Positions 4,495-45,679 of a DNA stretch of 54,617 bases are shown here, one piece after another. A program made the translations under genes and the position numbers. The stretch's first letter is position 1; the number at the start of each line of letters is the position of its first letter. The stretch is from the NCBI GenBank assembly GCA_016787285.1, contig JAEUUV010000052.1, positions 1 to 54,617 of the forward strand. Direction: 5' to 3'. The stretch is from Saprospiraceae bacterium (GTDB lineage: Bacteria > Bacteroidota > Bacteroidia > Chitinophagales > Saprospiraceae). The notes below the pieces were generated by a model that saw only the letters and a program-made list of their open reading frames with translations, did not search any database and was not told the DNA's origin.

Positions 4495-4526
4495 AGTTTT
4501 GAGTTTTGGGTTTTGAGTTTTGAGTT
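4495..4526 (+). repeat. heptanucleotide array (AGTTTTG)n after stop codon
   Basis: Four and a half tandem copies of AGTTTTG (third copy GGTTTTG) begin on the very next base after the TAA of the TPR gene. Their T-rich strand is in sense orientation. The same unit recurs at 29756-29780, 45507-45546 and 45646-45679, each time just past a stop codon. Confidence 0.85.
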
Positions 4527-4556
4527 AGTCGGACTTCGAGCAGGTGCTCCCATATG

Positions 4557-4584
4557 CATCACTCATCGTTCATCGCTCATCACT
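4557..4584 (-). repeat. heptanucleotide array (GNGATGA)n after rny stop
   Basis: Read on the minus strand, the rny TAA is followed by TA and then the heptads GTGATGA, GCGATGA, ACGATGA and GTGATG. The unit differs from the AGTTTTG arrays, but the 7-nt period and the position directly after a stop codon are the same. Two convergent genes thus each end in their own array. Confidence 0.7.
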
Positions 4585-4585
4585 A

Positions 4586-6268
4586 TTATCGTGCGTAGGC
4601 CACTGCCCGTTTTTCGCGGATGACCGTCACCCGGATTTGACCCGGGTACTGCATTTCGTCCTGAATTTTTTGCGAAATCATAAACGACAGATCGTCGGCA
4701 TACTGGTCGGTCACTTTGTCGGCTTCCACGATCACGCGCAGTTCGCGGCCCGCTTGCATAGCGAATGCTTTGGCCACACCCTCGTAGCTCATGGCGAGGT
4801 CTTCGAGTTCGCCGATACGCTTGAGGTAGTTTTCCAGAATCTCGCGGCGGGCACCGGGGCGGGCGCCGGAGATGGCGTCGCAAGCCTGCACGATGGGCGA
4901 GATGAGGTTGTTCATCTCGATTTCGTCGTGGTGGGCGCCTACGGCGTTGATAATGACCGGGTGTTCGCCGTGCTGTTCGCAGAGTTTCATGCCCACGAGT
5001 GCGTGCGAGAGTTCCGTTTCCTCTTCGGCTACTTTACCGATGTCGTGTAGCAGGCCGGCGCGTTTGGCCATTTTGATCTGCTTGGGATTGAGACCGAGTT
5101 CGGCGGCCATCGTGGCGCAGAGGTTGGCCGTTTCGATGGAGTGCTTGAGCAGGTTTTGACCGTAAGACGAGCGGAAACGCATGCGGCCCACCATGCGCAC
5201 GAGCGCGGCGTTTAGGCCGTGGATGTTCAGTTCGATGACCGTACGCTCGCCGATTTCGATGATTTGCTCTTCGAGTTGTTTGCGCACTTTGGCCACCACT
5301 TCCTCGATACGGGCGGGGTGGATACGACCGTCGGCGGTGAGGCGCTGGAGCGACAGGCGCGCCACCTCGCGGCGAATGGGGTCGAACGAGGATATGACAA
5401 TGGCTTCAGGCGTGTCGTCCACGATAATCTCGACACCGGTAGCGGCTTCGAGGGCGCGAATGTTCCGGCCTTCGCGACCGATGATCTGGCCCTTCATGTC
5501 GTCGTTTTCCAGGTTGAATACCGACACGGTATTTTCGATAGTAAACTCGGCGGCAGTGCGCTGGATGGTCTGAATGACGATTTTTTTGGCTTCTTTGCTG
5601 GCGTTGAGTTTGGCCTGAGTAATGGCGTCTTTCACGATGGATAGCACCTCGCTCTCGCTCTTGGCGCGTACGGCTTCGAGCAACTGGTCTTTGGCGTCCT
5701 GCTGGCTGAGTTGAGAAATTTTTTCCAGCATCTTGATGCGCTCCTCATTGGCGGCATCCAGTTCCTCTTTCTTCTTCTGCACGATTTTCAGTTGCTTGTC
5801 CAGGTTCTCGCGCAGCACTTCAATTTCCAGTTCCTTGTTTTCTACTTCCGATTTTTTGGCATTGAATTCGTTCAGACGTACCTGAAACAGGTCCTGTTCC
5901 ACCTGAAGGTCTTTCTGCTTGCTGACGACCTCCATTTCCATTTCCTTCAGGCTGATCTGATGCTGGGCTTTTTCAGTATCAAACTGGCTGCGCATCTGGG
6001 CGTAACGCTCTTTGGCCTCCTGAATTTTTTGTTGTTTGATACGCTCGTTTTCGGCTTCAGCCTTTCCGATAACCTTTTCAGCCTGTACCGCTGCTTCATC
6101 GGTGATGCGCTTGGCAGTGAGGCGGGCCTCCTGAATGGCAAGGTCGGCCTGGCGGTTGCCTTCTTCGATAACTTTCTGATTCGTGGCTTGATTGGCGCGG
6201 CTCGCGATCAGGTATACCACGATACCGCCAACCACTACTCCTATGACGATTCCTATTGTTATATCCAT
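4586..6268 (-). CDS. rny: ribonuclease Y
   Basis: This 560-residue protein has the full RNase Y architecture: one N-terminal transmembrane helix (residues about 3-22), a long charged coiled coil (about 30-200), a KH RNA-binding domain with [10 protein letters not shown] at 262-271, and an HD phosphohydrolase domain with H376, the HD pair H408-D409 and HH at 446-447. It is the membrane-bound endonuclease that initiates mRNA decay. The length is slightly above the usual 520 residues because of the coiled coil. It lies 64 nt downstream of pheT on the same strand, so cotranscription is likely. In many Bacteroidota a small zapA gene sits between pheT and rny; the gap here is too short for it. Confidence 0.96.
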
Positions 6269-6332
6269 TGTTGGTTTGCATTAATTGTGAGTAATAAAAG
6301 ACTTGGCAGTCCATGTTGACCGGGCTGCCGGT

Positions 6333-8780
6333 TTATTTTCGAATACTTGCATTCAATTTTTGCTCGAACGCCTGTTGCAATTGCTGCATCAGCGCGTCAA
6401 TTTCCTTGTCTTGCAGGGTCTTTTGCGGGTCTTCGAACAGAAAACTCACCGCATACGACTTTTTCCCGGCGCCTAATTTGGCTTCGTCCTCGAACACGTC
6501 GAAGAGGTTGACTTCTTTCAGCAGTTTTTTGGCGGTTTTGGCGGCCAGTTGGCGGATTTCCCCAAAGGTCACCGACTGGTTGAGCACCAAGGCCAGATCG
6601 CGGCGCACCACCGGGAATTTACTCAGTTCCTGGAATTGAATTCGATTGCCGGCCAAAGCCGCCAGCACGTTGTCGAAGTTGAAATCGGCGAAAAAGACGG
6701 AATTTTTGATGTCCATCTTTTTGGAAATGGCCGGGGCAACTTGCCCGAGCGTCACCAATTCTTTCGGCCCGCGGTGGTAGCGCAGAGCATAGCGAAAAGG
6801 CGTTTCCTGCAATGCCGTTTCCTGAAAACCGCTGATACCGAGGCGGGTGAGCAGGTTTTGTACATATACTTTCAGCGTGAAAAAGTCGGCGTCTGCTTTT
6901 GCCGCAGGCTGCCAACTTTCGGGGCTGTGTGCGCCGGTAAGGAAAATGCCGAGGCGCCCCGTTTCGGAACCTTCGCCGAGCGGCGCCTGGTATGTTTTCC
7001 CGAATTCGTACAGCCGCAGGTCGGCGTTTTGCCGGTTCTGGTTGTGGCGGATGGTTTCGAGGCCGCTGAACAGGAGTGTGGGGCGCAGGCAGTCGAGGCC
7101 CTGATTGGCGGTGTTGTGTACGAAAACCAGCGACTCCCTGGGCATGGGCAGAAGTGCGTTTTCGCCGACGTGGTAGCCGGAATTTGACAGCGAGAGGCTC
7201 ATGCACTCGAAAAAGCCGTTGGCCGACAGAAAATCCGCAACGAGATTCCGCACGGCATCCGGGTTGGGCCGCTGCGTGATTTCCATGCTGGTGCGCATGC
7301 GCGCGGGCATGGGCACGGAGTCGAGGCCGTGTACGCGCAGAATTTCCTCGATGACGTCGGCTTCACGGGTCACGTCGGGTTTGTTGGTGGGGATGACGGC
7401 TGTGAAGCCACCGTCTGTTTCGTTTTCGATGCCGATTTGCAGGGCGGTCAGGATGTTTTTGACCGTAGCCTTCGGTAGCGCTTCGCCGATCAGGGCATTT
7501 ACCCGCTCGTAGTTCATGTCTACGCGGGTGGGCAGCACAGGGGTCGGGTAAATATCGGTGATGCCGGAAGCGATTTCGCCGCCGGCCAGTTCAAGCACGA
7601 GGGCGGCGGCGCGGTGGAGTGCCGTCAGGCAGCCGTTGGGGTCCACGCCTTTTTCAAAGGTCCAGGCCGCGTCGGTGCGCAGGCTGTGGCGGAGCATGGA
7701 GCGGCGAATCCAGACGGGATTGAAGCGGGCACTTTCGAGAAATACACTGGTGGTACCGGTGGTAACGCCGCTGGTGGCGCCACCAAATACGCCGCCGATA
7801 CACATCGGGTTGGATTCAGCGTCGCAGATCATCAGGTCCTGGTCGGACAGTTTCCGCTCGACCTCGTCGAGGCTTTTGAACACGGTGCCCTCGGGCAAGG
7901 TTTTGACGACGATTTTGTTGCCGCGAATCTGGTTGGCATCGAAGGCGTGCAGGGGTTGGCCGAGTTCGAGTCGGACGAGGTTGGTCACGTCCACCACGTT
8001 GTTGATCGGGCGTTGACCGAGTGCCAGCAGGCGATCCTTGAGCCAGCCGGGGCTTTCGCCCACCTGTACGCCCCGGATCAGTACGCCGGTGTAGCGGTGG
8101 CAGGCTTCGGTATTTTCCACCTCCACGGCATACTTCGTACCTCGAACTTCGTCAATCGTACTCCGCAAGTCGTGTTTCAGTTCGGCCTGCGGGTTTTCGT
8201 GGTGGCGCACCCAGGCCAGCAGATCGCGGGCGATGCCAAGGTGGTTGGTGGCGTCGGCACGGTTGGGGGTGAGGCCGATTTCGTAGACGATGTCGGAGTG
8301 GAGATTGAGGTACTCGGAGGCTCGTATTCCGAGCGGCGTGTTGTCGGGCAAAACCAGGATACCGGAGTGGTCATGCCCGATGCCGAGTTCGTCTTCGGCG
8401 CAGATCATACCCTGGGAGGGCACGCCGCGCACTTTGCGTTCGCCGATCTGGAAAAGTTGTCCGTCTTTGCTGAAAACCGTGGCGCCGGGCAGGGCAACGA
8501 GGACGTGTTGTCCCACAGCCACATTGGGCGCGCCGCACACAATGGAGCGCACCGTCCCATCGCCCACATCCACCCGGGTAGCCGAGAGGTGGTCGGTATC
8601 GGGAATACGCGTGCATTCGAGCACCCGTCCGGTCAGTACGTTATCCAAATCAACCGGAGAGGGTTTTACCGCGTCCCATCCTTCCACTTCAAGACCCAGC
8701 GAGGTTAGTATGTCGGCGATTTCTTCGGGTGTTTTATTTAAGTCGAGAAATTCTCGAATCCAATTCAGCGAAACCTTCAT
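6333..8780 (-). CDS. pheT: phenylalanyl-tRNA synthetase beta subunit
   Basis: This is the 815-residue beta subunit of the alpha2-beta2 phenylalanyl-tRNA synthetase, which carries the editing site for mischarged Tyr-tRNA(Phe). It starts with the typical MKVSLNWIREFLDL, followed by an EMAP/tRNA-binding OB fold (about 40-150), the B3/B4 editing domain (about 210-400), the B5 domain (about 400-480), a catalytic-like core, and a ferredoxin-fold anticodon-binding domain ending near SVTFGEIRQLAAK and its RDLALV strand. The length is typical. pheS is not in the window. A weak TACCTTAG element lies about 60 nt upstream on the minus strand. Gene order then continues into rny. Confidence 0.96.
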   Translation of the reverse strand: MKVSLNWIREFLDLNKTPEEIADILTSLGLEVEGWDAVKPSPVDLDNVLTGRVLECTRIPDTDHLSATRVDVGDGTVRSIVCGAPNVAVGQHVLVALPGATVFSKDGQLFQIGERKVRGVPSQGMICAEDELGIGHDHSGILVLPDNTPLGIRASEYLNLHSDIVYEIGLTPNRADATNHLGIARDLLAWVRHHENPQAELKHDLRSTIDEVRGTKYAVEVENTEACHRYTGVLIRGVQVGESPGWLKDRLLALGQRPINNVVDVTNLVRLELGQPLHAFDANQIRGNKIVVKTLPEGTVFKSLDEVERKLSDQDLMICDAESNPMCIGGVFGGATSGVTTGTTSVFLESARFNPVWIRRSMLRHSLRTDAAWTFEKGVDPNGCLTALHRAAALVLELAGGEIASGITDIYPTPVLPTRVDMNYERVNALIGEALPKATVKNILTALQIGIENETDGGFTAVIPTNKPDVTREADVIEEILRVHGLDSVPMPARMRTSMEITQRPNPDAVRNLVADFLSANGFFECMSLSLSNSGYHVGENALLPMPRESLVFVHNTANQGLDCLRPTLLFSGLETIRHNQNRQNADLRLYEFGKTYQAPLGEGSETGRLGIFLTGAHSPESWQPAAKADADFFTLKVYVQNLLTRLGISGFQETALQETPFRYALRYHRGPKELVTLGQVAPAISKKMDIKNSVFFADFNFDNVLAALAGNRIQFQELSKFPVVRRDLALVLNQSVTFGEIRQLAAKTAKKLLKEVNLFDVFEDEAKLGAGKKSYAVSFLFEDPQKTLQDKEIDALMQQLQQAFEQKLNASIRK

Positions 8781-8887
8781 TTGCTCTGAAAATCAATCGG
8801 ATTATTTGTGTTTGTTTTCGGGTAAATCGGGCTTTGTTCAGAGCTAAGGTAGCGAGGTTTCGGAAAAATACAGCCTTTGGTTTTTTC

Positions 8888-8919
8888 TTTGGGTGTGCGC
8901 CGAAGATGTTGCACTTTTG
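8888..8919 (+). promoter_or_regulatory. possible promoter for the glycosyltransferase gene
   Basis: TTTG (8888-8891) is followed after 20 nt by CACTTTTG (8912-8919), one mismatch from the Bacteroidota -7 consensus TAnnTTTG. It would give a leader of roughly 45 nt before the ATG at 8970. Confidence 0.35.
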
Positions 8920-8969
8920 CAGGCCCTCGCTTTACCCTTTTTCAAACCTTAATCCTGCGTTTGTTTGCC

Positions 8970-10019: not shown

Positions 10020-10152
10020 GAGCGTCGGGCGCTGAGGTTAAGCGCAGTAGGACACTTCAACGGGCAGATTTTTTTGGTTGTTTCCTGAAATTATTATAAT
10101 TATTTCTGATTACAACTTGAAAAATTCAAATTTGCCTCAAAATACATACCCT

Positions 10153-12613: not shown

Positions 12614-12674
12614 GTTTTCTCAGTATGTTAGCAATCGTAAATCGTCCTTCGCAAATCGAACTTTTAAACTTCCC

Positions 12675-13085: not shown

Positions 13086-13119
13086 GTTCAGGTTCCTGTT
13101 TTTTTGTTTATTCGGGGCA

Positions 13120-13127: not shown

Positions 13128-13200
13128 GGCGGCAATCTGCTTCCTGTACGCACTTCGATGTGTTTACGTGTCGGGGACCGGCTCAAGGGGCAATTCCTGT

Positions 13201-16063: not shown

Positions 16064-17170
16064 TCACACATCATACGACACCTCCACGACCTCCGTCTCC
16101 GGCCGCGCCTGGCAGGTAAGGCAGTAGCCGGCCTTCACCTCCTCGTCGTCAAGCGCGTAGCAGGCGTCCATTTTTACCTTGCCATTCAGCACCTTGGCCA
16201 TGCAGGTCGAGCAGGCGCCGGCGGTGCAGGAATACGGCGCGTCGTGTTTCTCCTTCACCATGACATCCAGAATGGTCGCACCGGGCGGGATGCTGGTCTC
16301 AATGCGTTTGCCGTTGAGGTGCACGATCAGTTTGGCGCCCGCCCCGCTCGCCGCTTCACTGAATTCGCCCGGGGTGTGTGAAGCGTTGACAAAGTGCTCG
16401 GTGTGAATTTGTTTTTCGGAAATGCCTCGGGCGAGCAGGGCGGATTTGACCGAATCGGTCATCCCACCTGGGCCGCACACGAAGTAGTGGCAGTCGCCTT
16501 CCGGGCCGTGCGGCATGTTTTCGTCCAGGAAAGTAGTCGCTGCGCGCGCGTCAATCCGGCCTGTTTTGCCGTTCCAGTTGGAACTGTATTTTTTAAACAA
16601 ACCAAGGAAGCTGCCTGTGGCTTCTTTTTTCGGGCGACTCAGGATGTGCTCCACGAAAAGTTGACCGGTATAGCGCTCGGACAGGCGATCCAGTTCGTCG
16701 CGAAAGATGATATTCTCCTCGTCGCGGCTGCCGTAAAGCAGGAAAACGGCACTCATCGGCTCGGCCTCCAGCGTGGTTTTCAGGATGGACATAAGCGGCG
16801 TGATGCCGCTGCCGGCGCCAAAAACGTAGTAGGTGCGGCGTTTGTCAGGGTCAAGTTTGACAAAAAAACGCCCGTCGGGCGGAGCCACTTCGAGCGTGTC
16901 GCCGGGCTTGAGCGAGTCGTGTAAAAACGCCGACATCCGGCCACCGGCCACCTTTTTTACCGTGACGGCAAATCGCTCTTCCAGCGGACTGGACGACATG
17001 GAGTACGAACGCCGTACCTCGTGCCCGCCGATATCGTGCCGAACGGTAATGTGCTGGCCCTGCGTGTACGCGAACGCATCGCGCAGGTTCTCCGGGATTT
17101 GAAATTCCAGTGTGACGGCGTCGGGAGTTTCCGGGGTAATCTTGCTGATTATGAGTTTATGAAAATCCAT
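16064..17170 (-). CDS. PaaE-type ferredoxin/flavin oxidoreductase
   Basis: This 368-residue protein has three modules: an FAD-binding domain with RRSYSMSS (53-60), an NAD(P)-binding domain with FGAGSGITP (117-125) and CGPGGM (about 233-238), and a C-terminal plant-type 2Fe-2S ferredoxin with C315, C320, C323 and C353. This is the PaaE/PaaK architecture, which passes electrons from NADPH to the phenylacetyl-CoA epoxidase. Relatives serve other oxygenases or act as general ferredoxin reductases. The oxygenase subunits PaaABCD are absent here, so the partner is unknown; the nearby PaaI thioesterase is suggestive only. The final codon abuts the purF stop. Confidence 0.88.
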
Positions 17171-17187
17171 GTTAAAGCAGGTTGGGC

Positions 17188-17487
17188 GGGTTGAGCGGGT
17201 TGAGCGGGTTGAGCGGGTTTAACGGGTTGAGTAAGTTGAGTTTGAAAGCCCCGAAGGGGCGCCATATCCGAAAGCAGGGCAGCGCCCTGCTTTTCTACGA
17301 CATCTCGACGGGAAGCCCTGAAAGGGCGCTATATCCTCACACGCGGCTGTGTTATGCCGCCCTTTCAGGGCTTATTCGCAGGGCAGGACTTTATAAGCAG
17401 GGCGCTGCCCTGCTTTCGGGTCTGGCGCCCCTTCGGGGCTTTCAAACTAAACTTACCCAACCCGTTAAACCCGTTAAACCCGTTAAA
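17188..17487. repeat. 300-bp nested inverted-repeat block (REP-like cluster)
   Basis: The left side has five 9-nt units (GGGTTGAGC x3, GGGTTTAAC, GGGTTGAGT; 17188-17232). It continues into a 21-nt segment (17244-17264, GAAAGCCCCGAAGGGGC...) whose exact reverse complement is at 17423-17443. The right side ends in three CCCGTTAAA units (17461-17487). Nested hairpins include AAAGCAGGGC-agc-GCCCTGCTTT (17271-17293) and its counterpart AAGCAGGGC-gct-GCCCTGCTT (17395-17415). Inverted copies of AAGCCCTGAAAGGGCG lie near 17313 and 17357. Open frames across it look like by-products of the repeats. Confidence 0.85.
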
Positions 17488-17498
17488 CCTCCTTGTCC

Positions 17499-20042
17499 TT
17501 AATCCGGTTCAAAACCGAGTACAATATTAAACTTGGCAAATTGGGACCAGCCGGCGCCCGAGTTGATGAGCGAGGGTTTGTCGAAGCCGTAGCCGTAGTC
17601 GAAACCGAGGGTGCCGAACATGGGCAGGAATACACGCAGACCAAAACCGGCGGAACGGCGCAGGTCAAACGGATTGAAGTCTTTGGCCGACTGCCAGGCA
17701 TTGCCGCCCTGCGCAAACGCCGTAACAAAAATTGTGCTGGAAGGGTTGAGCGAGATCGGGTAGCGGAGTTCGACGGTGTACTTGTTGAACACGCCGGCGC
17801 CACCAGGGAATGGGGCCATGATGTCGGACACCTCGTAGCCGCGCATGCTGATGATGCTACGGCCGAAAAAGCCGAAGTTTTGGTTGTTCAGGCCGTCGCC
17901 GCCGAGGTCGAAACGCTCGAAGGGGCTGAGGCCGGTTTTGTCCGTCCAACCGTCGAGGATACCAATTTTAGCCTGTGTTTTCAGCACGAGTTTGCCCACG
18001 AGGGTAGTGTACCATTCGGCATCGAAGCGCCACTTCACGTACTCGATGTAGCGGTAAATGTCCTGCACGTTGTCGCTTTCGTAAAACGATTTTTCCTTGA
18101 ACCAGGAATACGGCGGGGTAGCCTTGACGGTGAGCGACACGAGCGAACCGGTTTTCGGGAAAATCGGGTCATTGATGCTGTTACGCGCCAGGGTTAAACT
18201 AAAACTGTAGTTGTGGTAAATACCCTGATTGACGACGCGCCCCTTGTCGTCGCGGAAACTTGTCCAGTTGTTGATGTTCAGGTTTTGCATGTCGAGGTTG
18301 GCGCGGAAGACGAAGTTGTCGTCCGGCCACTTCAGTCGTGTACCGAAACCAACGGAACCTTGCAAAATGGTAAGTTGCTGATACGTGGACGAACCCTCGA
18401 AACCACTGGAAATTTTGTTGTAAAACCCGGCTACGGTGAGCGAATTGGGTTTCTTGCCGCCCAGCCAGGGTTCAGTGAAGGACACGTTGTAGGACTGGAA
18501 GTTTTGTCCCGAAGTTTGGCCGCGCAGGCTGAAGCGCTGGCCGTCGCCTTGAGGTAAGGGGTTCCAGGCTTCCCGGTTTTTGATGTTGCGCAGCGAAAAG
18601 TTGTTGAACGTGACGCCCAGCGTACCGATGACCCCGCCGCGGGAGAATGCCGTACTGGGCTGGTAACCTGCCGAGAGTTCGAGCTGGTCGGAAGGCTTTT
18701 CCTCCACGGTGTACTCAATGTCCACGGTGCCCCGCTCGGGGTTTACCGGAGTGTTGATGCTGAGCGCTTCCGGGTTAAAATAGCCGAGGTTGACGATTTC
18801 GCGCTGCGAGCGGATGATGTCGGAACGGCTGAACTTGTCGCCCGGACGGGTGTACAATTCCCGGCGGATGACGTGCTCGTGGGTGCGGTCGTTGCCCTTG
18901 ATGACTACGCGGTCAATGGTAGCTTGCGGGCCTTCGTAGATGCGGATTTCGAGGTCAATGGAGTCATTTTCGATGGAGGTTTCCACCGGATCGGCCCGGA
19001 AAAACAGGTAGCCGTTGTCGAGGTACAGCGAGGAAATATCGCGCCCGTCCTGGCTGAACGACAAGCGGGTGGTGAGCAATTCCTGGTTGAATACATCGCC
19101 TTTGTTGATGCCGAGTACCTGGTCGAGCGCCCGGTTTTCGTAGATGGTGTTGCCTTTCCAGGCGATGTTTCGGAAGTAGTAGCGGTTGCCCTCCTGAATG
19201 TCGAGTTGCAGGACAACATCGCCCTTGGGCGTGCGCCAGATGCTGTCGCGCAGCACGCGGGCATCGCGGAAGCCGATGGAGTTATAGTATTTTTCAATGG
19301 CGTACTTGTCGTCCTCGTAGTCGCTTTCCACGAGTTTGGACTTTTTGAAAATCTTGCCCTTGCGCTTCGTGTTTTCCATTTTCTTGCGCAGGGTTTTGGC
19401 TTTTACCTGTTTATTGCCGACGAACCGGATGTCGCTGATCTTGATACGCGGGCCGGGATCCACGACAAACTCAATGACGGCGCCGTTGGTGGCGCGTTCG
19501 TCGGGATTCACTTTCAGGGTGACGTTGGCATCGAGGTAGCCCTTCTCAATGAAGTATTTCTCCATGCCGTGTTTGATGGACAGCTTGCTGTGTTCGGTCA
19601 GGATGGTTCCTTTTTGAAGGAACTTGTTCACGATGGCGTTCAGGTCTTCGTGTTTGCCTTTTTTCACGCCGGAGAAAAAGTGCCGGGTATATCGGGGCAG
19701 TTCCTTGACGGCGATTTCAAGGAAAATTACGTTGCCCTGTGTGCGTTCGCGGATGATTTGCACGTCGGTGAACAGGCGCAGGCCCCAAAGCGCCTGCAGG
19801 GCCTTGGCCACCGCCGGCCCGGGAATGCGCAACTTATCGCCCACGCGGAGGCCGGAAATGGACACGAGCGCCTGCGGGTCGGCAAATTGAGCGCCGGTGA
19901 CGCGCACGCCGCCGATCTCGTAATCGGTCGGTTTGTCGTAGGTCATTATGGGCAGCGTGGAATCGGCGGGGCTTTGGGCCTGTGCTGCAGCCGCACCGAG
20001 TGCGAGCAGGACAAGGCCGAGAAAAGGCAATTTCATGGACAT
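17499..20042 (-). CDS. bamA: outer membrane protein assembly factor BamA
   Basis: This 847-residue Omp85 protein inserts beta-barrel proteins into the outer membrane. A signal peptide (to about residue 22, AAAAQAQS) is followed by POTRA repeats (about 35-430), where glycine- and DPGPRIKISDIRFVGN-type strands recur. A C-terminal 16-strand barrel (about 450-847) ends in an aromatic-rich strand, KFNIVLGFEPD. The lid-lock motif region shows FDLGGDGL (near 710). A second ATG lies two codons in. It follows surA after a 35-nt gap in what looks like a three-gene outer-membrane biogenesis operon, and its 3' end runs into the nested inverted-repeat block. Confidence 0.95.
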   Translation of the reverse strand: MSMKLPFLGLVLLALGAAAAQAQSPADSTLPIMTYDKPTDYEIGGVRVTGAQFADPQALVSISGLRVGDKLRIPGPAVAKALQALWGLRLFTDVQIIRERTQGNVIFLEIAVKELPRYTRHFFSGVKKGKHEDLNAIVNKFLQKGTILTEHSKLSIKHGMEKYFIEKGYLDANVTLKVNPDERATNGAVIEFVVDPGPRIKISDIRFVGNKQVKAKTLRKKMENTKRKGKIFKKSKLVESDYEDDKYAIEKYYNSIGFRDARVLRDSIWRTPKGDVVLQLDIQEGNRYYFRNIAWKGNTIYENRALDQVLGINKGDVFNQELLTTRLSFSQDGRDISSLYLDNGYLFFRADPVETSIENDSIDLEIRIYEGPQATIDRVVIKGNDRTHEHVIRRELYTRPGDKFSRSDIIRSQREIVNLGYFNPEALSINTPVNPERGTVDIEYTVEEKPSDQLELSAGYQPSTAFSRGGVIGTLGVTFNNFSLRNIKNREAWNPLPQGDGQRFSLRGQTSGQNFQSYNVSFTEPWLGGKKPNSLTVAGFYNKISSGFEGSSTYQQLTILQGSVGFGTRLKWPDDNFVFRANLDMQNLNINNWTSFRDDKGRVVNQGIYHNYSFSLTLARNSINDPIFPKTGSLVSLTVKATPPYSWFKEKSFYESDNVQDIYRYIEYVKWRFDAEWYTTLVGKLVLKTQAKIGILDGWTDKTGLSPFERFDLGGDGLNNQNFGFFGRSIISMRGYEVSDIMAPFPGGAGVFNKYTVELRYPISLNPSSTIFVTAFAQGGNAWQSAKDFNPFDLRRSAGFGLRVFLPMFGTLGFDYGYGFDKPSLINSGAGWSQFAKFNIVLGFEPD

Positions 20043-29755: not shown

Positions 29756-29780
29756 AACTCAAAACTCAAAACTCAAAACT
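29756..29780 (-). repeat. heptanucleotide array (AGTTTTG)n after permease stop
   Basis: On the minus strand the TAA of the permease gene is followed by GT and then about three and a half copies of AGTTTTG. The unit, strand and placement after a stop are as at 4495-4526. Confidence 0.85.
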
Positions 29781-29782: not shown

Positions 29783-31000
29783 TTACTCTTCCCGTAAATA
29801 AGCAGGCACCCGTACCGCACGAGCAGCCGGCGCCAGCGAGGCAAGCAGCCCGATGCCCAGCACCGTAGCAGTGACGGGCACAAAATCCTGGATACGCATG
29901 GAGATGGGGTAACTTTCCACCAGAAAGCCTTGCGGGATCGTGACGATACCCCAGGTTTTTTGCGCAAAATACAGCCCAACTGCCAGCACCATGCCGATAC
30001 CCATACCAAGTGCCGTGAGCAGTAGGCCTTCTCCCAAAAATATGCGCCGGATTGTCTGGGCGTCGGCGCCCATGCTTTTCAGGATGGAAATATCTTTTTG
30101 CTTATCCAGGACAATCATCCACAGCGCGCCTACCATGTTGAATGCCATGAGCAGCAGCATGAGGGTGGTGATGGCGAAGCCCATCCATTTTTCGAGGCGC
30201 ATGACTTTGAAAAACGCCTCGTTTTGTTCGTAGCGATCGCGCAAAACGTATCCGTCGCCGAGTACCGCAGCGACGGCTTGTTTGACGGAAGCCGGGTTGG
30301 TCCCCGACGCACAACGTATTTCCAGAGCAGATACCGTACCGGGCGGCGCCTCCAGCAGATCGCGCATAAAGCCGAGGTTGGTCAGCACATACTGGTTGTC
30401 AAAATCCTGTTGGATGGAAAAGGCGCCTTTGGGGTAAGCATACCGCACCGAGAACGAATTATCGAGCACTGCCGCTTTTTCCTTGGGCATGTACACCCGG
30501 AGTACGGCAATAGGGTTGTCCAGATTGACACTGAGCTTGTTCCGCATTCCCGCCCCCAGGACGGCGCAGTTGCGGTCGTCCTCCTCCAGGCGGTATTTGC
30601 CTTCGCGTATGGTCGAGTCAATATCGTTGACGCGGGCGAAATACCCATCCACACCTTTCAGCACACCGAAATCCTGCGAGCCTTCGTATTCGAAGAATGC
30701 AATCTCTTCGAGGGTTTCGCTTACGACGAAAACGCCGGGCAGACTGCGAATTTTTTCGAGGGTCAAACTGTCTACCTCAAACGTTTTGCCTTTGGCGGCC
30801 GTGATTTTAATCTCGGGATTGAAATACCCGAACAAGCCCGACAGCAGGTCTTCAAACCCGTTGAACACCGACAGGATCAGGATCAGCGCCGCCGTACCCA
30901 CCGAAATGCCAAACACCGAAATGCCGGCGATGATGTTGATGGCATTCGTGCTGCGTCGGGCAAAGAGATATCGTCGGGCAAAGAGGAACGGGATGTTCAC
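29783..31000 (-). CDS. LolC/E-type lipoprotein-releasing permease (FtsX-like)
   Basis: This 405-residue ABC permease has the MacB/FtsX layout: one N-terminal helix (about 22-45, GISVFGISVGTAALILILSVFNGF), a large periplasmic domain (about 46-270) and three C-terminal helices (about 275-300, 325-350 and 375-395). The LFARRYLFARR start and GISVGT-ALILILSVFNGFE segment are typical of LolC/LolE, which extract lipoproteins from the inner membrane with the ATPase LolD. LolD is not in the window. The start codon is GTG at 31000; no better in-frame ATG exists. It lies 21 nt downstream of the CNNM/CBS gene, so they are probably cotranscribed. Confidence 0.9.
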   Translation of the reverse strand: MNIPFLFARRYLFARRSTNAINIIAGISVFGISVGTAALILILSVFNGFEDLLSGLFGYFNPEIKITAAKGKTFEVDSLTLEKIRSLPGVFVVSETLEEIAFFEYEGSQDFGVLKGVDGYFARVNDIDSTIREGKYRLEEDDRNCAVLGAGMRNKLSVNLDNPIAVLRVYMPKEKAAVLDNSFSVRYAYPKGAFSIQQDFDNQYVLTNLGFMRDLLEAPPGTVSALEIRCASGTNPASVKQAVAAVLGDGYVLRDRYEQNEAFFKVMRLEKWMGFAITTLMLLLMAFNMVGALWMIVLDKQKDISILKSMGADAQTIRRIFLGEGLLLTALGMGIGMVLAVGLYFAQKTWGIVTIPQGFLVESYPISMRIQDFVPVTATVLGIGLLASLAPAARAVRVPAYLREE

Positions 31001-34080: not shown

Positions 34081-34088
34081 TTCCCATG

Positions 34089-36756: not shown

Positions 36757-37221
36757 AGGGTCACTGCATTTAGATTTAAAAAATGTTAACAGTTTAGTTC
36801 AACGCTTTTGAATTGGCGTAATTATGAAAATACAAATTATGATTTGTTTTTTCGGGTGCAAATGTCGTTTGTTTTTTGGAAAAAACCACAAGCGCGGTTT
36901 ATTGCGGGTCAAATATAGCGCAATCGAAGAAACATTATTTGGAGCCGGAGTATTTTTTCTCCCTGTCTCGAATTGGGGCGATTGCTTCTGGAAACATTTC
37001 GAAAATTTTCTTGCCACCAGCGACTACCGTACCTCCGAGAAATTGTTTGCGCACAGTTAATTCCGACACTTGCCGGAAAGACGCCGCAAAAGTAGCAAAA
37101 ATAGTATTGGATTTGTTGCTAACCGAAAAAGACTTGTTACCGGTTTGCTTTTTCTGAAGCGATATTTTTGCGTTCATTCCCGGACAAAGCCCGTTTTTTG
37201 CTGCCGAAACAAGTACATTCT
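36757..37221. other. 465-nt divergent promoter region
   Basis: This AT-rich region separates the OmpA-family gene (minus) from the arginase-fold gene (plus). -7-like elements: TATATTTG on the minus strand (36910-36917) and near-match GACATTTG (36859-36866) for the OmpA gene, and TATTTTTG on the plus strand (37163-37170) for the arginase-fold gene. None has a well-placed TTG. No gene or RNA was recognised. Confidence 0.4.
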
Positions 37222-39650: not shown

Positions 39651-39685
39651 TGTGGGCGCCGGCGTTGATTTGAACTTGTTGCAAC

Positions 39686-39718
39686 AAAAAAACGGGAGGG
39701 ACACGAGGCCCTCCCGTT
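39686..39718 (-). terminator. intrinsic terminator between gldJ and murF
   Basis: On the minus strand AACGGGAGGG and CCCTCCCGTT (39691-39700 with 39709-39718) form a perfect 10-bp stem with an 8-nt loop, followed by a T-run (39686-39692). It should stop most gldJ transcripts before murF, or tune the ratio of the two. Confidence 0.78.
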
Positions 39719-39748
39719 CTCAGGAGTAATATCGCAGTGCAAACGTAT

Positions 39749-41257: not shown

Positions 41258-41297
41258 TTTATTAAAATTAGTATAGCAGGTTTTGAAAAAAGAGCAG

Positions 41298-41305
41298 CAA
41301 ATGTA
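41298..41305 (-). promoter_or_regulatory. -7 element upstream of gldJ
   Basis: On the minus strand TACATTTG matches TAnnTTTG and lies 41 nt before the gldJ start codon. The -33 TTG is not evident. Confidence 0.45.
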
Positions 41306-41414
41306 GGCAAATAAAACATTTCACTATGGAGCGTCCGCCAAATTTAACGAAAGGAGAAAAATTTCGTCGCCTTTTGTCTTTCCGCCCATATTGTGTAAAT
41401 TAAACGCACAGAAT

Positions 41415-42398
41415 TCAATGGAACATTTTGGTGCAATCGTTCAGGTCGTGCGAACGCTTCCGTCCTTTGTCAAAAAAGAGGCCCAAGGTCAGCTCAAATG
41501 TACTGCCTGATGTGCCGGCAAGACCCGAAACCGTGTGGTCATAACTCAGCCCGATCTTGAACAAATCCTGCCGGAATCCGAACATCAGGATAGCCGCATC
41601 CGCATTTCCGAACGTGTGTCTTAGCCAAACTCCTCCGAAAACAGGCCCGGCGGCAGCATAGGCTCCGAGATTCAGTTGTTTGTACGGCCCTTGCGACACG
41701 AACAAAAAATTCGGGGAGATAAACGAGCCTTGATTTTGTTTATTGCCTCTCTTAACAGACAGTTCCGTGCCCCCGCTCAGCGTATACCGCAGGGGCAAGC
41801 CGCCGGAGAGGTTGTCATTGGCCAGCAGAAACCCTCGATCGGGGCTGTTCAGGTGTTTCAGCGACAGCCCGAGCCAGAACCGGTTGCTCACGAGCAACAA
41901 CCCGGAAGACAGGTCGAGCACCGTCTTGTTTAATTGATCCGGGCGAGTTTCCGTTGTCGTAAGCGTAGGGCCGGCCCAGGGGTCGAGTTGATCCGGGAAT
42001 ACTAATTTTTCCCAGTCAAGCGCCGTTTGCAAAAAACCGCCTTCCACCCCGATTTTCACCGCAAGGCCGTCCGATATTTTCAGGCGATAGGCATAGTTTG
42101 CCGAAAAACGGGTAGCGCGAAGGATGCCGTTGCCGGCGTCATCGCCCTCCAACTGAAACCCGATGCCGCTGTTCAGCCGCTCAATGCTTTGTTCGTAAAA
42201 TACCGCGTAGGTACGGTAGGCCGTGTTGAAGCCCGTCCATTGATTGCGGTAAGCAGCGCCGGCCCTCGGGGCGTAGCTGCTGCCGGCAAATGCCGGATTC
42301 AATTGCAGCGGCGTAGCGTAGAATTGTGAAAATATCGGATCCTGCGCCGCACCGCGCAATGCCAATAGGGCCAGAACGGCCAACAACACGTTTCTCAT
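41415..42398 (-). CDS. PorP/SprF family type IX secretion membrane protein
   Basis: This 327-residue outer-membrane protein of the PorP/SprF family has a signal peptide ending ALRGAAQ, then the diagnostic mature start DPIFSQFYATPLQLNPAFAGSS and AAYRNQW. A predicted barrel follows to the C terminus (FELTLGLFFD). Family members assist export or surface anchoring of particular T9SS cargo, such as SprB by SprF, and are often paired with an adhesin gene; here it sits upstream of gldJ on the same strand. The long upstream extension of the frame (to 42575) is not conserved and is rejected. Divergent from fni across 235 nt. Confidence 0.9.
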   Translation of the reverse strand: MRNVLLAVLALLALRGAAQDPIFSQFYATPLQLNPAFAGSSYAPRAGAAYRNQWTGFNTAYRTYAVFYEQSIERLNSGIGFQLEGDDAGNGILRATRFSANYAYRLKISDGLAVKIGVEGGFLQTALDWEKLVFPDQLDPWAGPTLTTTETRPDQLNKTVLDLSSGLLLVSNRFWLGLSLKHLNSPDRGFLLANDNLSGGLPLRYTLSGGTELSVKRGNKQNQGSFISPNFLFVSQGPYKQLNLGAYAAAGPVFGGVWLRHTFGNADAAILMFGFRQDLFKIGLSYDHTVSGLAGTSGSTFELTLGLFFDKGRKRSHDLNDCTKMFH

Positions 42399-42633
42399 AG
42401 AGCAGCAAAAATGTATGGCAAACAATATCGGTAGCACAGAACGCAACTTTCGGGGCGCAAGTTGAAGGGTTTTTTCCGGGAATCGCAAAAAGAACGCCGC
42501 CAACGGTAGGCAATTGCCCAAACTGGACAATCCGAAACAGGCGGGCACCTGAAGTTTTTGCAAAACCATGCACACATTCTGCTTGTTTCACGGGCACAAA
42601 ACCTGATCTTGCATCCACTTTTTCCTTCCGTGC

Positions 42634-43668
42634 ATGAATGCTGAACAAACGACACCCGAAGATCCAACGGCAGTTTCCCGAAAAAAAGACCACATCGAAC
42701 TGGCTTTTCGCAGTCAGGTGGGACGTCTCGCACTGGACAACCGCTTTTTTTACGAACCGGTGCTGGCAGCCCACCCCAAACCCGGCAGCCTGCCGCCGGT
42801 CAATTTTCTCGGAAAAACCCTGAGAACGCCCATTTGGGTGTCGTCCATGACTGGGGGCACGGCACTCGCCCGCACCATCAACCGGAATCTCGCCCGGGCC
42901 TGCGCCGAATTCGGCATGGGCATGGGCCTTGGCTCCTGCCGGCAGTTGCTGTACAGCGACGAGTATCTGCCCGACTTTGACGTGCGCGACATCATCGGCA
43001 CCGAACTCCCCCTGTACGCCAACCTCGGTATCGCGCAAGTGGAAAACCTGCTGCGCAACCGCCAATCGCCGGTTATCCGCGACTTGCTGAACCGGCTCCG
43101 CGCCGACGGCCTGATCGTCCACATCAATCCGCTTCAGGAAGCGATGCAACCCGAAGGTGATTTTTTTGAACGCCCGCCGCTGGACACCCTGGCGGAATTG
43201 CTTCGGGTGGCCGACTACCCCGTCATCGCCAAGGAGGTCGGCCAGGGCATGGGGCCTGCCAGTTTGCGCGCCTTGCTTCAACTTCCTTTGGCCGCCATCG
43301 AGTTTGCGGCAGCAGGCGGTACCAACTTCGCCAAACTCGAACTGCTGCGCAGCAGCCCGGAAAAGCAGGAGATTTTTAAAAAATTTGCCCACGTCGGCCA
43401 CTCCGCCGAGGAAATGGTGGAATTCGCCAACAGAATATTTACCGAACCGGATAGCCTGCACAAGGTGAACAACCTGATTCTTTCCGGCGGGGTTGGCGAC
43501 TTCATGGACGGCTACTACCTGATTCGCCGCTCGACGGTCCCGGCAGTTTACGGCCAGGCTTCGGGATTTTTGCGGCATGCGCAAGGCGAATACGCCGAGT
43601 TGCACGCATACGTATCGGCTCAGGTACGCGGTCTGGAACTGGCGAATGCATTTTTAAAAGTCCGCTAA
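42634..43668 (+). CDS. fni: isopentenyl-diphosphate delta-isomerase, type 2
   Basis: This 344-residue FMN-dependent TIM-barrel isomerase interconverts IPP and DMAPP. Motifs: RKKDH (16-20), SSMTGG (70-75), GMGLGSCRQLL (about 95-105), IVHINPLQEAMQPEGD (about 165-180), VIAKEVGQGM (about 200-210), AAAGGTNFAKLE (about 230-240) and NLILSGGV (near 280). The fold resembles IMP dehydrogenase. The length matches the bacterial type 2 enzyme. Isoprenoids here would supply menaquinone and carotenoids. It is a single gene, weakly terminated by TTCGGG/CCCGAA (43674-43690). No -7 element was convincing. Confidence 0.92.
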   Translation: MNAEQTTPEDPTAVSRKKDHIELAFRSQVGRLALDNRFFYEPVLAAHPKPGSLPPVNFLGKTLRTPIWVSSMTGGTALARTINRNLARACAEFGMGMGLGSCRQLLYSDEYLPDFDVRDIIGTELPLYANLGIAQVENLLRNRQSPVIRDLLNRLRADGLIVHINPLQEAMQPEGDFFERPPLDTLAELLRVADYPVIAKEVGQGMGPASLRALLQLPLAAIEFAAAGGTNFAKLELLRSSPEKQEIFKKFAHVGHSAEEMVEFANRIFTEPDSLHKVNNLILSGGVGDFMDGYYLIRRSTVPAVYGQASGFLRHAQGEYAELHAYVSAQVRGLELANAFLKVR

Positions 43669-43712
43669 AGTTCTTCGGGATTCGCCCGAAAGTGACCGTG
43701 TGACTCGAAGTT

Positions 43713-44546
43713 TCATCCATTTTTGTTAGCAAACTCCAGCAAAGCCGTTGCGTCTTTTTGGCGGCGGTGACCGGCATTGGCGGCGATTTCTCGCAACAAT
43801 TCGGAGGCTTTTTCCGCATCCCCCGCTTTCAGATATGCCAGGGCGGTGTACCACCGGCCTTCCTGGTATGGCCCGGCTGCTGCAGGGGGGATTTCCTGAA
43901 ATGCAGCAATTGCCGCTGCGACATCTCCCGAATCGAGCAAACAAGTACCCCGAAGCAGGAGGGCCATAGGCCGGTATTCAAATTTTTCGTCGGCCAGCAC
44001 CCGATCCAGATTGCGCAGCGCCTCCAAACAGTTTCGCGCGGCGTACTGTTGGCGCGCCAGGTTATACAACGTGTCGGTATCGGCGCCGCCCAGTGTATTG
44101 GACAGGTCGTAGTATTTAAAATAGGTGTTGTAGGCGATTTTTACTTTTTCTTTAGGCACCGCCAATGGTTTCGGCGCTGCCGGCGCATCCGGCGACACGA
44201 AAATTTTCAGGGCCAGGTATCCGAGCATAATTACTGCCAAGGCTGTTCCGGCGACAAATCCCCAGCGAATTTTGCTACTGCCGTCGGGGTTGGTCCGCAC
44301 AAACGCATCCTGAATGTTCCACCACCAGGAGCGCCACCGCAGTTTTTGCTGGCCACGCCGGTAGAGTGACTCCCGCCGGTCGAGCAGGGCCTGTACTTGC
44401 ACGGCTGCCCGTGCGGCTTGATGCAGCCGGAGTTCGGCAGCCAGTTCCGGTTCGGCGGCCAGCCGGGCTTCAAACTCCCGGCGCTGCTCGGGCGGCATGG
44501 CGCCGTCGAGGTATTGTTCGATTGGTGAAAGAAGCGGGTTTTCCAT
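43713..44546 (-). CDS. membrane protein with anti-sigma-like N terminus and TPR-like periplasmic domain
   Basis: This 277-residue protein has a cytoplasmic N terminus (IEQYLDGAMPPEQRREFEARLAAEPELAAELRLH), which resembles the anti-sigma helical segment that commonly starts such Bacteroidota proteins, but without a zinc finger. A single transmembrane helix lies at about 96-117. The periplasmic helical repeats look TPR-like (YNLARQQYAARNCLEALRNLDRVL, then RWYTALAYLKAGDAEKASELL). The start at 44546 is 8 nt after the sigma factor stop, and the pair is clearly cotranscribed. A membrane anti-sigma that senses an envelope signal through TPRs is inferred. Confidence 0.75.
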   Translation of the reverse strand: MENPLLSPIEQYLDGAMPPEQRREFEARLAAEPELAAELRLHQAARAAVQVQALLDRRESLYRRGQQKLRWRSWWWNIQDAFVRTNPDGSSKIRWGFVAGTALAVIMLGYLALKIFVSPDAPAAPKPLAVPKEKVKIAYNTYFKYYDLSNTLGGADTDTLYNLARQQYAARNCLEALRNLDRVLADEKFEYRPMALLLRGTCLLDSGDVAAAIAAFQEIPPAAAGPYQEGRWYTALAYLKAGDAEKASELLREIAANAGHRRQKDATALLEFANKNG

Positions 44547-44554
44547 GATTATTG

Positions 44555-45235
44555 CTAAAGTTGGTTTTTGCGGTTGAGCCAGGCGCACAGGTCGCGGCAT
44601 ACAGGCTCTCCCTGTTGACAAAGATTTTTCAATGCCTCGCGCAAGCTGTCCATGCCCCGGGATACCATTTCGTGGGCCACCCGGGCGGTTTTGAACCCGT
44701 GGAGCTCGGTAAGTTCCTCGTAGTCGTAACCGTCGAGTTTGTTCACGAGCAGCGCGCGCCGTTTTTTCGGCATTTCATCCAGCGCCTTGAGCACGCATGC
44801 GGTGATGCGGTTCTGGCGCTGGCGGCGCTCGTTCTCGTTGTCGTGCTCCAGGAGACGATTCAGGACATGGTCGCTGTCGGAGTTTTGCAAGGCATCCAGA
44901 AACCAGTCGGGCAGTTCGATCGTGTTGGATGAATTTCCCAACGGGTCTGTACCGGTCTTTGTCGTGCGCTTTCGGATGGTGTCAACTCCGCGGCGGTGGG
45001 TGAGGGTGTACAGCATCTTGCCCAATTCTTCGAACGACTCACCGTGGCGAATTTTCCAGTCCAGTTCAGTGAGTGCATCGGAGAATGCCATGAGGGCGTC
45101 GTCGTACGAAAGGCGTTGCTGGCGCACACCGATCTGCCGGATCAGGTAAAAATATTTGTCTTGCAGGTAACGTCCGGCGCGTTCGCGGGAGATGCCGCCT
45201 TGCCGGATCATCCGGATCAGTTGATCGTCGTTCAT
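44555..45235 (-). CDS. RNA polymerase sigma factor, ECF-like
   Basis: This 226-residue factor has a region 2-like N terminus (DDQLIRMIRQGGISRERAGRYLQDKYFYLI, then DDALMAFSDALTELDWKI and LGKMLYTLTHRRGVDTIRKR). A region 4-like C terminus follows (ALDEMPKKRRALLVNKLDGYDYEELTELHGFKTARVAHEMVSRGMDSLREAL). It is a divergent ECF-type factor. The adjacent downstream gene is its likely membrane anti-sigma factor. The ATG at 45235 fits; the longer frame to 45388 has no family resemblance. A TATATTTG -7 element lies about 50 nt upstream. Confidence 0.8.
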   Translation of the reverse strand: MNDDQLIRMIRQGGISRERAGRYLQDKYFYLIRQIGVRQQRLSYDDALMAFSDALTELDWKIRHGESFEELGKMLYTLTHRRGVDTIRKRTTKTGTDPLGNSSNTIELPDWFLDALQNSDSDHVLNRLLEHDNENERRQRQNRITACVLKALDEMPKKRRALLVNKLDGYDYEELTELHGFKTARVAHEMVSRGMDSLREALKNLCQQGEPVCRDLCAWLNRKNQL

Positions 45236-45280
45236 GAAATTGTTTCGAAGGCGCCGGGGAAAATGAGGTGGAATACCCGG

Positions 45281-45288
45281 CAAATATA
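45281..45288 (-). promoter_or_regulatory. -7 element upstream of the sigma/anti-sigma pair
   Basis: On the minus strand TATATTTG matches TAnnTTTG, giving a leader of about 40 nt. The -33 position is A-rich without TTG. The intergenic region 45236-45405 otherwise holds a short palindrome GTTTTTC-a-GAAAAAC near 45312. Confidence 0.42.
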
Positions 45289-45405
45289 CAGGCTCAAATT
45301 TTTTTTCGGGTTTTTCAGAAAAACAGTTGAGACCCGGAAACGTCCCGCGACAGATTATGCCGTAAACCAACGCAACGAAAACATCCAACCAAACCGATCA
45401 ATACC

Positions 45406-45504
45406 ATGCACAGCACAAGTAACCAAATGTCCCGCTCCCCGTTCTGCCTTGAGGCCCAAAGCATCGTTGAAAACCGACTTAATCCGTACAACCAGCCGCC
45501 GTAG
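45406..45504 (+). CDS. possible small protein (32 residues)
   Basis: An ATG at 45406 opens a 32-codon frame (MHSTSNQMSR...QSIVENRLNPYNQPP) ending in TAG at 45504. I recognise no family, signal peptide or membrane segment. What supports it is placement: the T-rich (AGTTTTG)n array that elsewhere follows stop codons of real genes begins 3 nt after this TAG, on the same strand. It is divergent from the sigma factor gene. No ribosome-binding site or promoter is convincing, so this may equally be chance. Confidence 0.28.
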   Translation: MHSTSNQMSRSPFCLEAQSIVENRLNPYNQPP

Positions 45505-45506
45505 GT

Positions 45507-45546
45507 AGTTTTGAGTTTTGAGTTTTGAGTTTTGAGTTTTGAGTTG
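45507..45546 (+). repeat. heptanucleotide array (AGTTTTG)5
   Basis: Five full copies of AGTTTTG plus a partial AGTTG, with no variation between copies, starting 3 nt after the TAG of the possible small gene. It forms an inverted pair with the array at 45646-45679, separated by 99 nt. The 448-nt stretch 45236-45683 holds no recognised larger gene. Confidence 0.88.
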
Positions 45547-45645
45547 AGTTTCTCCTGGCTCGAAACTGTCGCTTCTCAATTGTAATCCTTTGAACAAACT
45601 TAATCTCAGGTGTCCCACAAACCCCAAAACCATTTGAAAACGAGA

Positions 45646-45679
45646 AAAACTCAAAACCCAAAACCCAAAACTCAAAACT
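45646..45679 (-). repeat. heptanucleotide array (AGTTTTG)n after permease stop
   Basis: On the minus strand the TGA of the MacB-like permease is followed by TGGC, then AGTTTTG units, two of them with GGG in place of GAG. It is inverted relative to the array at 45507-45546. Confidence 0.85.

What the first reader, a model, noticed from the sequence alone, without database searches (positions are those of the whole stretch)
4495..45679. Heptanucleotide arrays placed immediately after stop codons
Five arrays with a 7-nt period occur at 4495-4526, 4557-4584, 29756-29780, 45507-45546 and 45646-45679. Four use AGTTTTG and one uses GNGATGA. Each starts 0-5 nt after a stop codon (TPR gene, rny, LolC/E-like permease, a possible 32-codon gene, MacB-like permease), with the same strand sense as the gene. 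Convergent genes at 4.5 kb each have their own array. Short heptanucleotide STRR repeats are known in cyanobacteria; a strict stop-codon association in Bacteroidota is, as far as I know, not described. It suggests a mark acting on mRNA 3' ends.
Basis: partly seen in the sequence, partly recalled or inferred. Interest (0 to 1): 0.72.

Follow-up and report, generated by a model that had tools for sequence, protein, structure and literature searches.

The report
Outward-pointing heptamer repeats at gene borders
Short 7-letter DNA repeats really do sit right behind stop codons in this bacterium, but they sit just as tightly in front of start codons and beside tRNA genes, nearly always pointing away from the gene, which makes them a border-hugging repeat of a kind already seen in Xanthomonas and Nostoc rather than a special mark of mRNA ends.

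Summary
The five arrays are real, but one (45507) follows no supported gene. An 889-kb sample of the genome holds 109 seven-nt arrays: 83 AGTTTTG, 20 GATGAGN, 6 other. The rule is wider than 'after stop codons': the G-strand reads outward from whichever gene border it touches. Of 57 arrays within 15 nt of one border, 56 point outward (34 stops, 22 starts), 1 inward. tRNA borders count too. Arrays inside genes keep the frame and seem to replace variable loops. Inverted pairs are common. AGTTTTG arrays of other taxa show the same polarity (26 outward, 0 inward); same-genus species carry other 7-8-nt units at the same borders. Spacers of one tRNA operon mostly keep a hairpin while sequence turns over. 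Rehm et al. 2015 (PMC4692102) reported this polarity for G4-forming heptamers; here the unit cannot form a G4. A 3'-end mark is not supported. Best reading: repeats that fill unconstrained DNA up to functional borders, orientation filtered by coding compatibility and pairing. Why the polarity is so strict remains open.

The parts
4495..4526 (+). AGTTTTG array, 4.6 units, begins 0 nt after the stop codon of the TPR gene (2944-4494, +); points outward
   Evidence: TRF; sequence; gene calls; TPR domains; rule
4557..4584 (-). GATGAGN array (TRF 4557-4581), 4 nt from the stop codon of rny (4586-6268, -); points outward; with 4495 it makes a mixed pair whose arms are of different families
   Evidence: TRF; pattern; RNase Y domains; position
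29756..29780 (-). AGTTTTG array, 3.6 units, 2 nt after the TAA of the FtsX/MacB_PCD permease gene (29783-31000, -); five same-genus species show other G-rich repeats at this stop codon
   Evidence: orthologues by eye
45507..45545 (+). AGTTTTG array, 5.6 units, inside the intergenic region 45236-45683; left arm of an inverted pair with 45646; no supported gene ends at it
   Evidence: ORF score; pair
45646..45679 (-). AGTTTTG array, 4.9 units, 4 nt from the stop codon of the MacB-like permease gene (called 45684-46922, -); right arm of the pair
17176..17240 (+). nonamer array AGCGGGTTG, outward from the start border of gene 16064-17170 (-); left arm of a 328-nt hairpin that fills the intergenic region
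   Evidence: TRF; sequence; fold -211 kcal/mol for 17171-17498
17459..17489 (-). nonamer array AACCCGTTA (G-strand on -), outward from the stop border of gene 17499-20042 (-); right arm of the same hairpin
   Evidence: TRF; sequence; fold

Best explanation
The arrays are lineage-specific short tandem repeats (7-8 nt, sometimes 9) that spread and expand in DNA that selection does not hold, and are stopped at the borders of functional sequence (start codon, stop codon, tRNA end, terminator, conserved protein core). Shown here: hugging of borders, outward G-strand polarity, inverted pairing, in-frame arrays in the place of variable loops, different units in different species at the same border. 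Inferred: the polarity is mainly a filter. After a stop codon the AGTTTTG or GATGAGN sense copy carries TGA in every frame and can even supply the stop codon; in leaders and inside ORFs the opposite strand in sense is free of stop and start codons; between co-transcribed units the two arms pair into a hairpin that separates neighbours. A sequence-specific mRNA 3'-end mark is not needed.
For: Border hugging: 45 of 70 arrays within 8 nt of the outward border, 8.9 expected. Polarity 56 outward: 1 inward in the own genome, 41: 2 in six same-genus genomes with other units, 26: 0 for AGTTTTG in other taxa (13 cyanobacterial, 5 Bacteroidota, 8 other). In 18 of 37 stop-border arrays the stop codon overlaps the array; TAG is 14 of 37 against 119 of 587 stops of the sample. 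G-strand units carry a stop codon at 27 of 31 stop-border arrays of relatives (54 of 71 overall, shuffled mean 43.7, P 0.0025). In-gene arrays stand in loops of like length in an AMP-ligase, MnmE and FolC. The same stop codons carry different units in different species. Array length differs between the close pair G007/G009 at shared sites. tRNA-operon spacers fold in 48 of 74 cases (z below -3) with sequences that mostly look unrelated.
Against: A coding filter does not explain everything: 19 of 37 stop-border arrays begin after an intact stop codon, where orientation should not matter, yet only one array near a single stop border points inward; tRNA spacers, which are not translated, have the same G-first polarity (41 of 48); Xanthomonas GGGAATC has no stop codon on either strand (read from the unit) yet has the same rule. 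Array-free stop borders have no G/C skew, so arrays do not inherit polarity there. Simple neutral filling does not by itself predict a commonest length of 4.4 units (23 of 83) or the recurrent inner end AGT(G/T)G (42 of 83). 30 of 52 array-bearing regions have one arm only, so pairing cannot be the whole reason. Three arrays touch both borders of a short region and are therefore inward for one of them.
Confidence: 0.45

Rival explanations
1. Selected RNA hairpins: the inverted arms are kept because a stable stem between neighbouring units of a transcript (CDS-CDS, CDS-tRNA, tRNA-tRNA) is useful, for instance as an RNase III type processing site or insulator; tandem repeats are merely the raw material of the arms.
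For: Orthologous tRNA-operon spacers fold far better than shuffles in 48 of 74 cases although most sequences look unrelated between species. All three spacers of the own Thr-Tyr-Gly-Thr operon are AGTTTTG hairpins reaching to 0-7 nt of the mature tRNA ends. 19 of 52 array-bearing intergenic regions hold a +/- pair (one more holds ++++-) and none a -/+ pair. Among regions of 40-160 nt without arrays, stable folds (z below -3) are commoner in co-directional and convergent than in divergent ones (28 of 127, 10 of 26, 3 of 30).
Against: 30 of 52 array-bearing regions have one arm only; singles obey the polarity as well (21 outward, 1 inward, 3 touching both borders, 5 neither); two pairs are of mixed families and cannot pair well (window 4495/4557 and, by eye, L180 18815-19170); arms of a pair are not clearly more alike than arms of different pairs (17 pairs, P 0.06); four genomes of 3.4-3.9 Mb (G002, G011, G026, G042) have tRNA spacers of only 13-39 nt with at most short stems.
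Confidence: 0.25
2. A mobile hairpin system: arms are REPIN-like elements moved by a Y1 (RAYT-type) or other enzyme whose polarity fixes the G-strand outward.
For: Inverted, G-first short repeats between genes recall REPINs (recalled); Y1_Tnp matches are present in 33 of 41 genomes, 9 in the own one. Among 30 genomes with matched loci, arrays occur in 1 of 7 without Y1_Tnp and 15 of 23 with it (Fisher P 0.03). One Y1 locus of G008 (L255) has arrays on both sides, of two different units.
Against: Arrays are not enriched at Y1_Tnp genes: 4 of 30 fetched Y1 loci hold any (5 arrays in 90.7 kb) against 73 arrays in 339 kb of other loci, and none of the 4 own-genome Y1 loci examined holds one. G046 has arrays but no Y1_Tnp match; array density follows genome size (rho 0.50, P 0.005) more than Y1 number (rho 0.24, not significant). 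In genes the arrays seem to replace loops instead of adding length.
Confidence: 0.15
3. One reading: a mark acting on mRNA 3' ends.
For: Strong same-sense association with stop codons (34 outward, 1 inward); for Xanthomonas, transcripts were reported to start or stop more often in putative G4 repeats than in control repeats.
Against: Equally tight at start codons, at tRNA 5' and 3' ends and in genes; no clear enrichment in convergent regions; unit not conserved at orthologous stop codons; behind rny a separate terminator-like stem follows the repeat in G029 and G047, and G046 and G036 have that stem without a repeat (by eye).
Confidence: 0.05

Closest known systems
G4-forming GGGAATC repeats of Xanthomonas and GGGGA(T/C)T repeats of Nostoc (Rehm et al. 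2015, PMC4692102; sections 10, 13, 15 and passages of others seen)
   Different: Here the units AGTTTTG and GATGAGN have no G-runs and cannot form a G-quadruplex, so the polarity does not need one; tRNA borders, loop replacement in proteins and different units at orthologous borders were not in what I read ('tRNA' does not occur in the main text)
TAACTGA heptamer repeats of Beggiatoaceae, Cyanobacteria and five Bacteroidetes (MacGregor 2015, PMC4679880; abstract and sections 3, 10, 24 read)
   Same: 7-nt direct repeats in intergenic DNA, also in Bacteroidetes, often within nucleotides of a gene border
   Different: Reported mainly upstream of start codons in one orientation and read as possible sites for translational control; no outward rule at both borders in what I read
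STRR sequences of filamentous cyanobacteria (recalled)
   Same: short heptamer tandem arrays in intergenic DNA; 58 of the 113 stretches found with four AGTTTTG units are cyanobacterial
   Different: polarity at gene borders is not part of the definition as I recall it
REP/BIME/REPIN elements with RAYT transposases (recalled; PMC2817692 seen only in a search listing)
   Same: extragenic, inverted pairs between genes; Y1 transposases present in most genomes here
   Different: here simple 7-8-nt tandems, not enriched at the Y1 genes; a conserved tetranucleotide was not looked for

Membership tests
Border-hugging G-strand heptamer repeats as in Rehm et al. 2015 | 7-nt unit, most often about four units | tested here: met
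   4.4 copies is the commonest length, 23 of 83 AGTTTTG arrays
Border-hugging G-strand heptamer repeats as in Rehm et al. 2015 | sense strand behind stop codons, antisense strand before start codons | tested here: met
   56 of 57 arrays near one border point outward
Border-hugging G-strand heptamer repeats as in Rehm et al. 2015 | convergent inverted pairs | tested here: met
   19 of 52 array-bearing intergenic regions +/-, 0 -/+
Border-hugging G-strand heptamer repeats as in Rehm et al. 2015 | G-runs able to form a G-quadruplex | tested here: not met
   consensus units AGTTTTG and GATGAGN have no run of three G; single variant units GGTTTTG give isolated GGG
REPIN / REP-RAYT | Y1 (RAYT-type) transposase in the genome | tested here: met
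   9 PF01797 matches in the own genome; whether they are RAYTs proper was not tested
REPIN / REP-RAYT | repeat copies flanking the transposase gene | tested here: inconclusive
   arrays in 4 of 30 Y1 loci, no enrichment, none in the 4 own-genome loci examined; one search used a less sensitive finder
REPIN / REP-RAYT | conserved palindromic 20-40-nt sequence with a GTAG-type tetranucleotide | not tested
   arms are simple tandems; the tetranucleotide is recalled and was not searched
Intrinsic terminator | stem followed at once by a T-run, preferred between convergent genes and avoided between divergent ones | tested here: inconclusive
   array-bearing regions follow the background of region types: co/conv/div 34/10/8 against 288/69/103; T-runs after arrays were not counted; separate terminator-like stems follow the repeats behind rny in G029 and G047 (by eye)

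The most novel reading that the evidence does not exclude
A widespread, sequence-independent process in bacteria adds short tandem repeats at the borders of functional DNA with the G-strand running 5'->3' away from the border, as a telomere-like 3'-end extension or another polar repair or copying enzyme would; every lineage writes its own 7-8-nt unit, and coding selection only trims the result.
Probability: 0.12. Interest if true: 0.85.

Novelty: new variant of a known kind. Interest (0 to 1): 0.55.

Why it matters
It turns a supposed stop-codon signal into a polarity rule for simple repeats at gene borders that holds in several phyla and for many unit sequences, including units that cannot form G-quadruplexes. 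So a G-quadruplex is not needed for the arrangement reported in Xanthomonas and Nostoc, and a sharp, testable question is left: is the polarity made by the mutational machinery or by selection? The tRNA-operon spacers, where a hairpin usually persists while its sequence changes, give a clean natural experiment.

Tried and rejected
Stop-codon-only rule: rejected by start, tRNA and in-gene arrays. Transcription terminator: array-bearing regions are not clearly enriched for convergent pairs, and behind rny a terminator-like stem stands with and without a repeat. Inheritance of local base composition: array-free stop borders have a G-C skew of about 0.01-0.03 over the first 45 nt (start borders 0.17-0.30). 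Fold-back copying of one arm from the other: arms of a pair are not significantly more alike than across pairs (P 0.06). Stop codons in the unit as sole reason for polarity: 27 of 31 stop-border units of relatives carry one, but 4 without one obey too. G-quadruplex: no G-run in the consensus units. The reversed-pattern control of the genome search is useless here because AGTTTTG reversed is a rotation of itself. Literature: searches listed no paper whose title or abstract start reports AGTTTTG arrays at bacterial gene borders; listings only, open-access library only.

Limits: gene calls come from my own hexamer-based caller, so start positions are approximate. 37 of 83 AGTTTTG and 9 of 20 GATGAGN arrays are not among the 57 (inside called genes 18, near both borders 3, near neither 25); the 6 arrays of other units are left out. 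In-gene orientation is biased because the G-strand of these units carries stop codons: 17 of 18 in-gene arrays of the own sample have the C-rich strand in sense, one (L164 55-78, in a hairpin near a contig end) does not; in relatives 7 of 8 in-gene 7-8-nt arrays (L320 4153 is the exception). The one inward array of the 57 is L186 17506, whose other flanking called gene is 2,236 nt away. A mended point: one search found no array at 22 Y1 loci, but its finder missed known arrays; TRF finds arrays in 4 of 30 Y1 loci.

Sampling: 60 stretches were taken; the 20 and 12 of the 20 were chosen because arrays were known there; the 20 were chosen by contig number alone and gave 12 AGTTTTG/GATGAGN arrays in about 262 kb (5 outward, 1 inward, 1 touching both borders, 2 near neither, 3 inside called genes).

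Full report
Observation. The tandem-repeat scan and the sequence confirm all five 7-nt arrays. Shuffled controls give 0.03 expected matches against 12 for AGTTTTG and 0.03 against 2 for the GNGATGA pattern. Neighbouring genes: TPR protein, RNase Y, two FtsX/MacB_PCD permeases. The array at 45507 follows only a 32-codon ORF with a hexamer coding score of about -1 and lies in the intergenic region 45236-45683.

Genome scale. The own genome (5.56 Mb, 345 contigs) has 545 hits of three AGTTTTG units with up to two mismatches, overlapping registers included. I read 60 stretches plus the window, 889 kb in all, called genes with a home-made hexamer model (625 genes) and found 109 seven-nt arrays of at least 2.9 copies: 83 AGTTTTG, 20 GATGAGN, 6 other. 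The 20 stretches chosen blind hold 12 AGTTTTG/GATGAGN arrays, about one per 22 kb.

The rule. Of 57 AGTTTTG or GATGAGN arrays within 15 nt of exactly one gene border, 34 are outward at a stop codon, 22 outward at a start codon, 1 inward at a stop codon, none inward at a start codon. The other 46 are 18 inside called genes, 3 near both borders and 25 near neither. With random placement in the same intergenic regions, 8.9 of 70 arrays would lie within 8 nt of the outward border; 45 do, and 1 lies within 8 nt of the inward border. Pairs are + then - in 19 of 52 array-bearing regions and never - then +. Singles obey the polarity as well: of 30, 21 outward, 1 inward, 3 both, 5 neither.

Not only coding borders. 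In one contig every spacer of the tRNA operon Thr-Tyr-Gly-Thr is an AGTTTTG hairpin whose arms end 0-7 nt from the tRNA ends, and a further arm ends 6 nt before tRNA-Trp. One array starts right after a terminator-like stem and T-run (L180 8475, by eye). Of the 9 tRNA genes found in the sample only the 5 of this contig have such neighbours in the lists.

Inside genes. Of 18 arrays in called genes, 17 have the C-rich strand in sense; the exception lies in a hairpin near a contig end. Several are in frame in recognisable genes (AMP-ligase, FolC-like Mur ligase, MnmE, ABC2 permease, M36 peptidase, GT2, UvrD_C and others). Two called as in-gene sit at what is probably the true start codon (L189, L178 11555). 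Alignment suggests replacement rather than addition: in the AMP-ligase the array aligns without a gap to a loop of the best solved relative; in MnmE and FolC it stands where relatives have other sequence of similar length, and one relative, G006, has a 7-nt array of another unit (ACTCACG) in the same MnmE loop.

Array anatomy. Read outward, the base before the array is C in 36 of 79, G, A or T in the rest; the commonest length is 4.4 units (23 of 83) and 42 of 83 end AGT(G/T)G. In 18 of 37 stop-border cases the stop codon overlaps the array.

Relatives. Of 19 relatives searched for the AGTTTTG 21-mer with one mismatch, 1 had a single hit; another same-genus genome, G029, has many matches to the repeat. 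Yet six same-genus genomes carry other units with the same polarity: of 76 intergenic 7-8-nt arrays, 41 outward, 2 inward, 2 both, 28 near neither (21 nearer their outward border), 3 without a flank (15 arrays in genes or of period 5-6 left out). Behind the same permease stop codon the own genome has AGTTTTG, G007 and G009 GAGGGTTT-type, G005 GCGGAAT, G029 GTTTGAA-like and G031 GAGGATGC repeats; in the other 11 relatives looked at by eye I see no clear repeat right there. In the close pair G007/G009 (about 95% identical) repeat length differs strongly at shared sites.

Other taxa. An exact scan for four AGTTTTG units returned 113 stretches before it stopped at its limit: 58 cyanobacterial, 22 Bacteroidota-like, 33 other by record title. 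In those of at least 1,500 nt (two dropped) there are 124 arrays: 26 outward, 0 inward, 1 both, 46 near neither (36 nearer their outward border), 22 at locus ends, 29 in genes, all 29 with CAAAACT in sense. The scan was for this unit, so it says nothing about how common the unit is.

Structure. The tRNA operon was compared in 30 genomes (own included) for which loci came back, of 41 searched. Of 86 spacers, 74 have 30 nt or more; 48 of these fold with z below -3, and in 41 of the 48 the 5' arm has more G than C, in 6 fewer, in 1 equal. By eye the sequences are unrelated except between close species; not all stems are tandem arrays. G002, G011, G026 and G042 (3.4-3.9 Mb) have spacers of 13-39 nt instead.

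Mechanism. A sequence-specific mark is unlikely because the unit changes while the site stays. I favour repeat expansion in unconstrained DNA, stopped at functional borders, with orientation filtered by what the sense strand tolerates and by pairing of arms. The filter is incomplete as an explanation: arrays behind intact stop codons, tRNA spacers and stop-free units keep the polarity, and array-free stop borders have almost no skew. A polar generating process therefore stays open.

Known work. Rehm et al. 2015 (PMC4692102; sections 10, 13, 15 and passages seen) reported for Xanthomonas and Nostoc heptamers the same two preferred positions, a four-unit mode and, in Xanthomonas, inverted pairs, studied them as potential G-quadruplexes and left the function open. 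MacGregor 2015 (PMC4679880; abstract, sections 3, 10, 24) reported TAACTGA heptamers, also in five Bacteroidetes. A 2025 survey of short tandem repeats (PMC12699852; one passage seen) notes a high repeat density in Bacteroidota. The present arrays are a G4-incapable variant with a clearer border rule.

Noticed in passing
window 17171-17498: The whole intergenic region is one giant nested hairpin (-211 kcal/mol for 328 nt) with nonamer arms AGCGGGTTG / AACCCGTTA at the gene borders.
   Followed up: partly
G007 stretches L263-L267 and L273-L277, e.g. A7 44439-44543: A 105-nt repeat with TATAC...GTATA ends, 10 near-full copies in 200 kb of G007, present/absent between G007 and G009 at five sites: looks like a recently active MITE.
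   Followed up: partly
L173 119-158, L156 8439-8466, L150 16437-16461 (near contig ends): AGTTTTG arrays near contig ends run into poly-G, perhaps an assembly or sequencing artefact.
   Followed up: no
window arrays: T+AGTTTTG matches the recalled Bacteroidota -7 promoter motif TAnnTTTG and the 7-nt period repeats TTTG upstream; outward promoter activity was not tested.
   Followed up: no
window 53946-54615 and 50422-51219: Long tandem repeats (42/90-nt and 234-nt units) inside called genes near the end of the window.
   Followed up: no
L147 11609-11941, L168 2677-2914, L192 7163-7439: Further inverted intergenic repeats with other motifs (CACAGAG..., CAGACGTTACGCAGA...), seen by eye.
   Followed up: no
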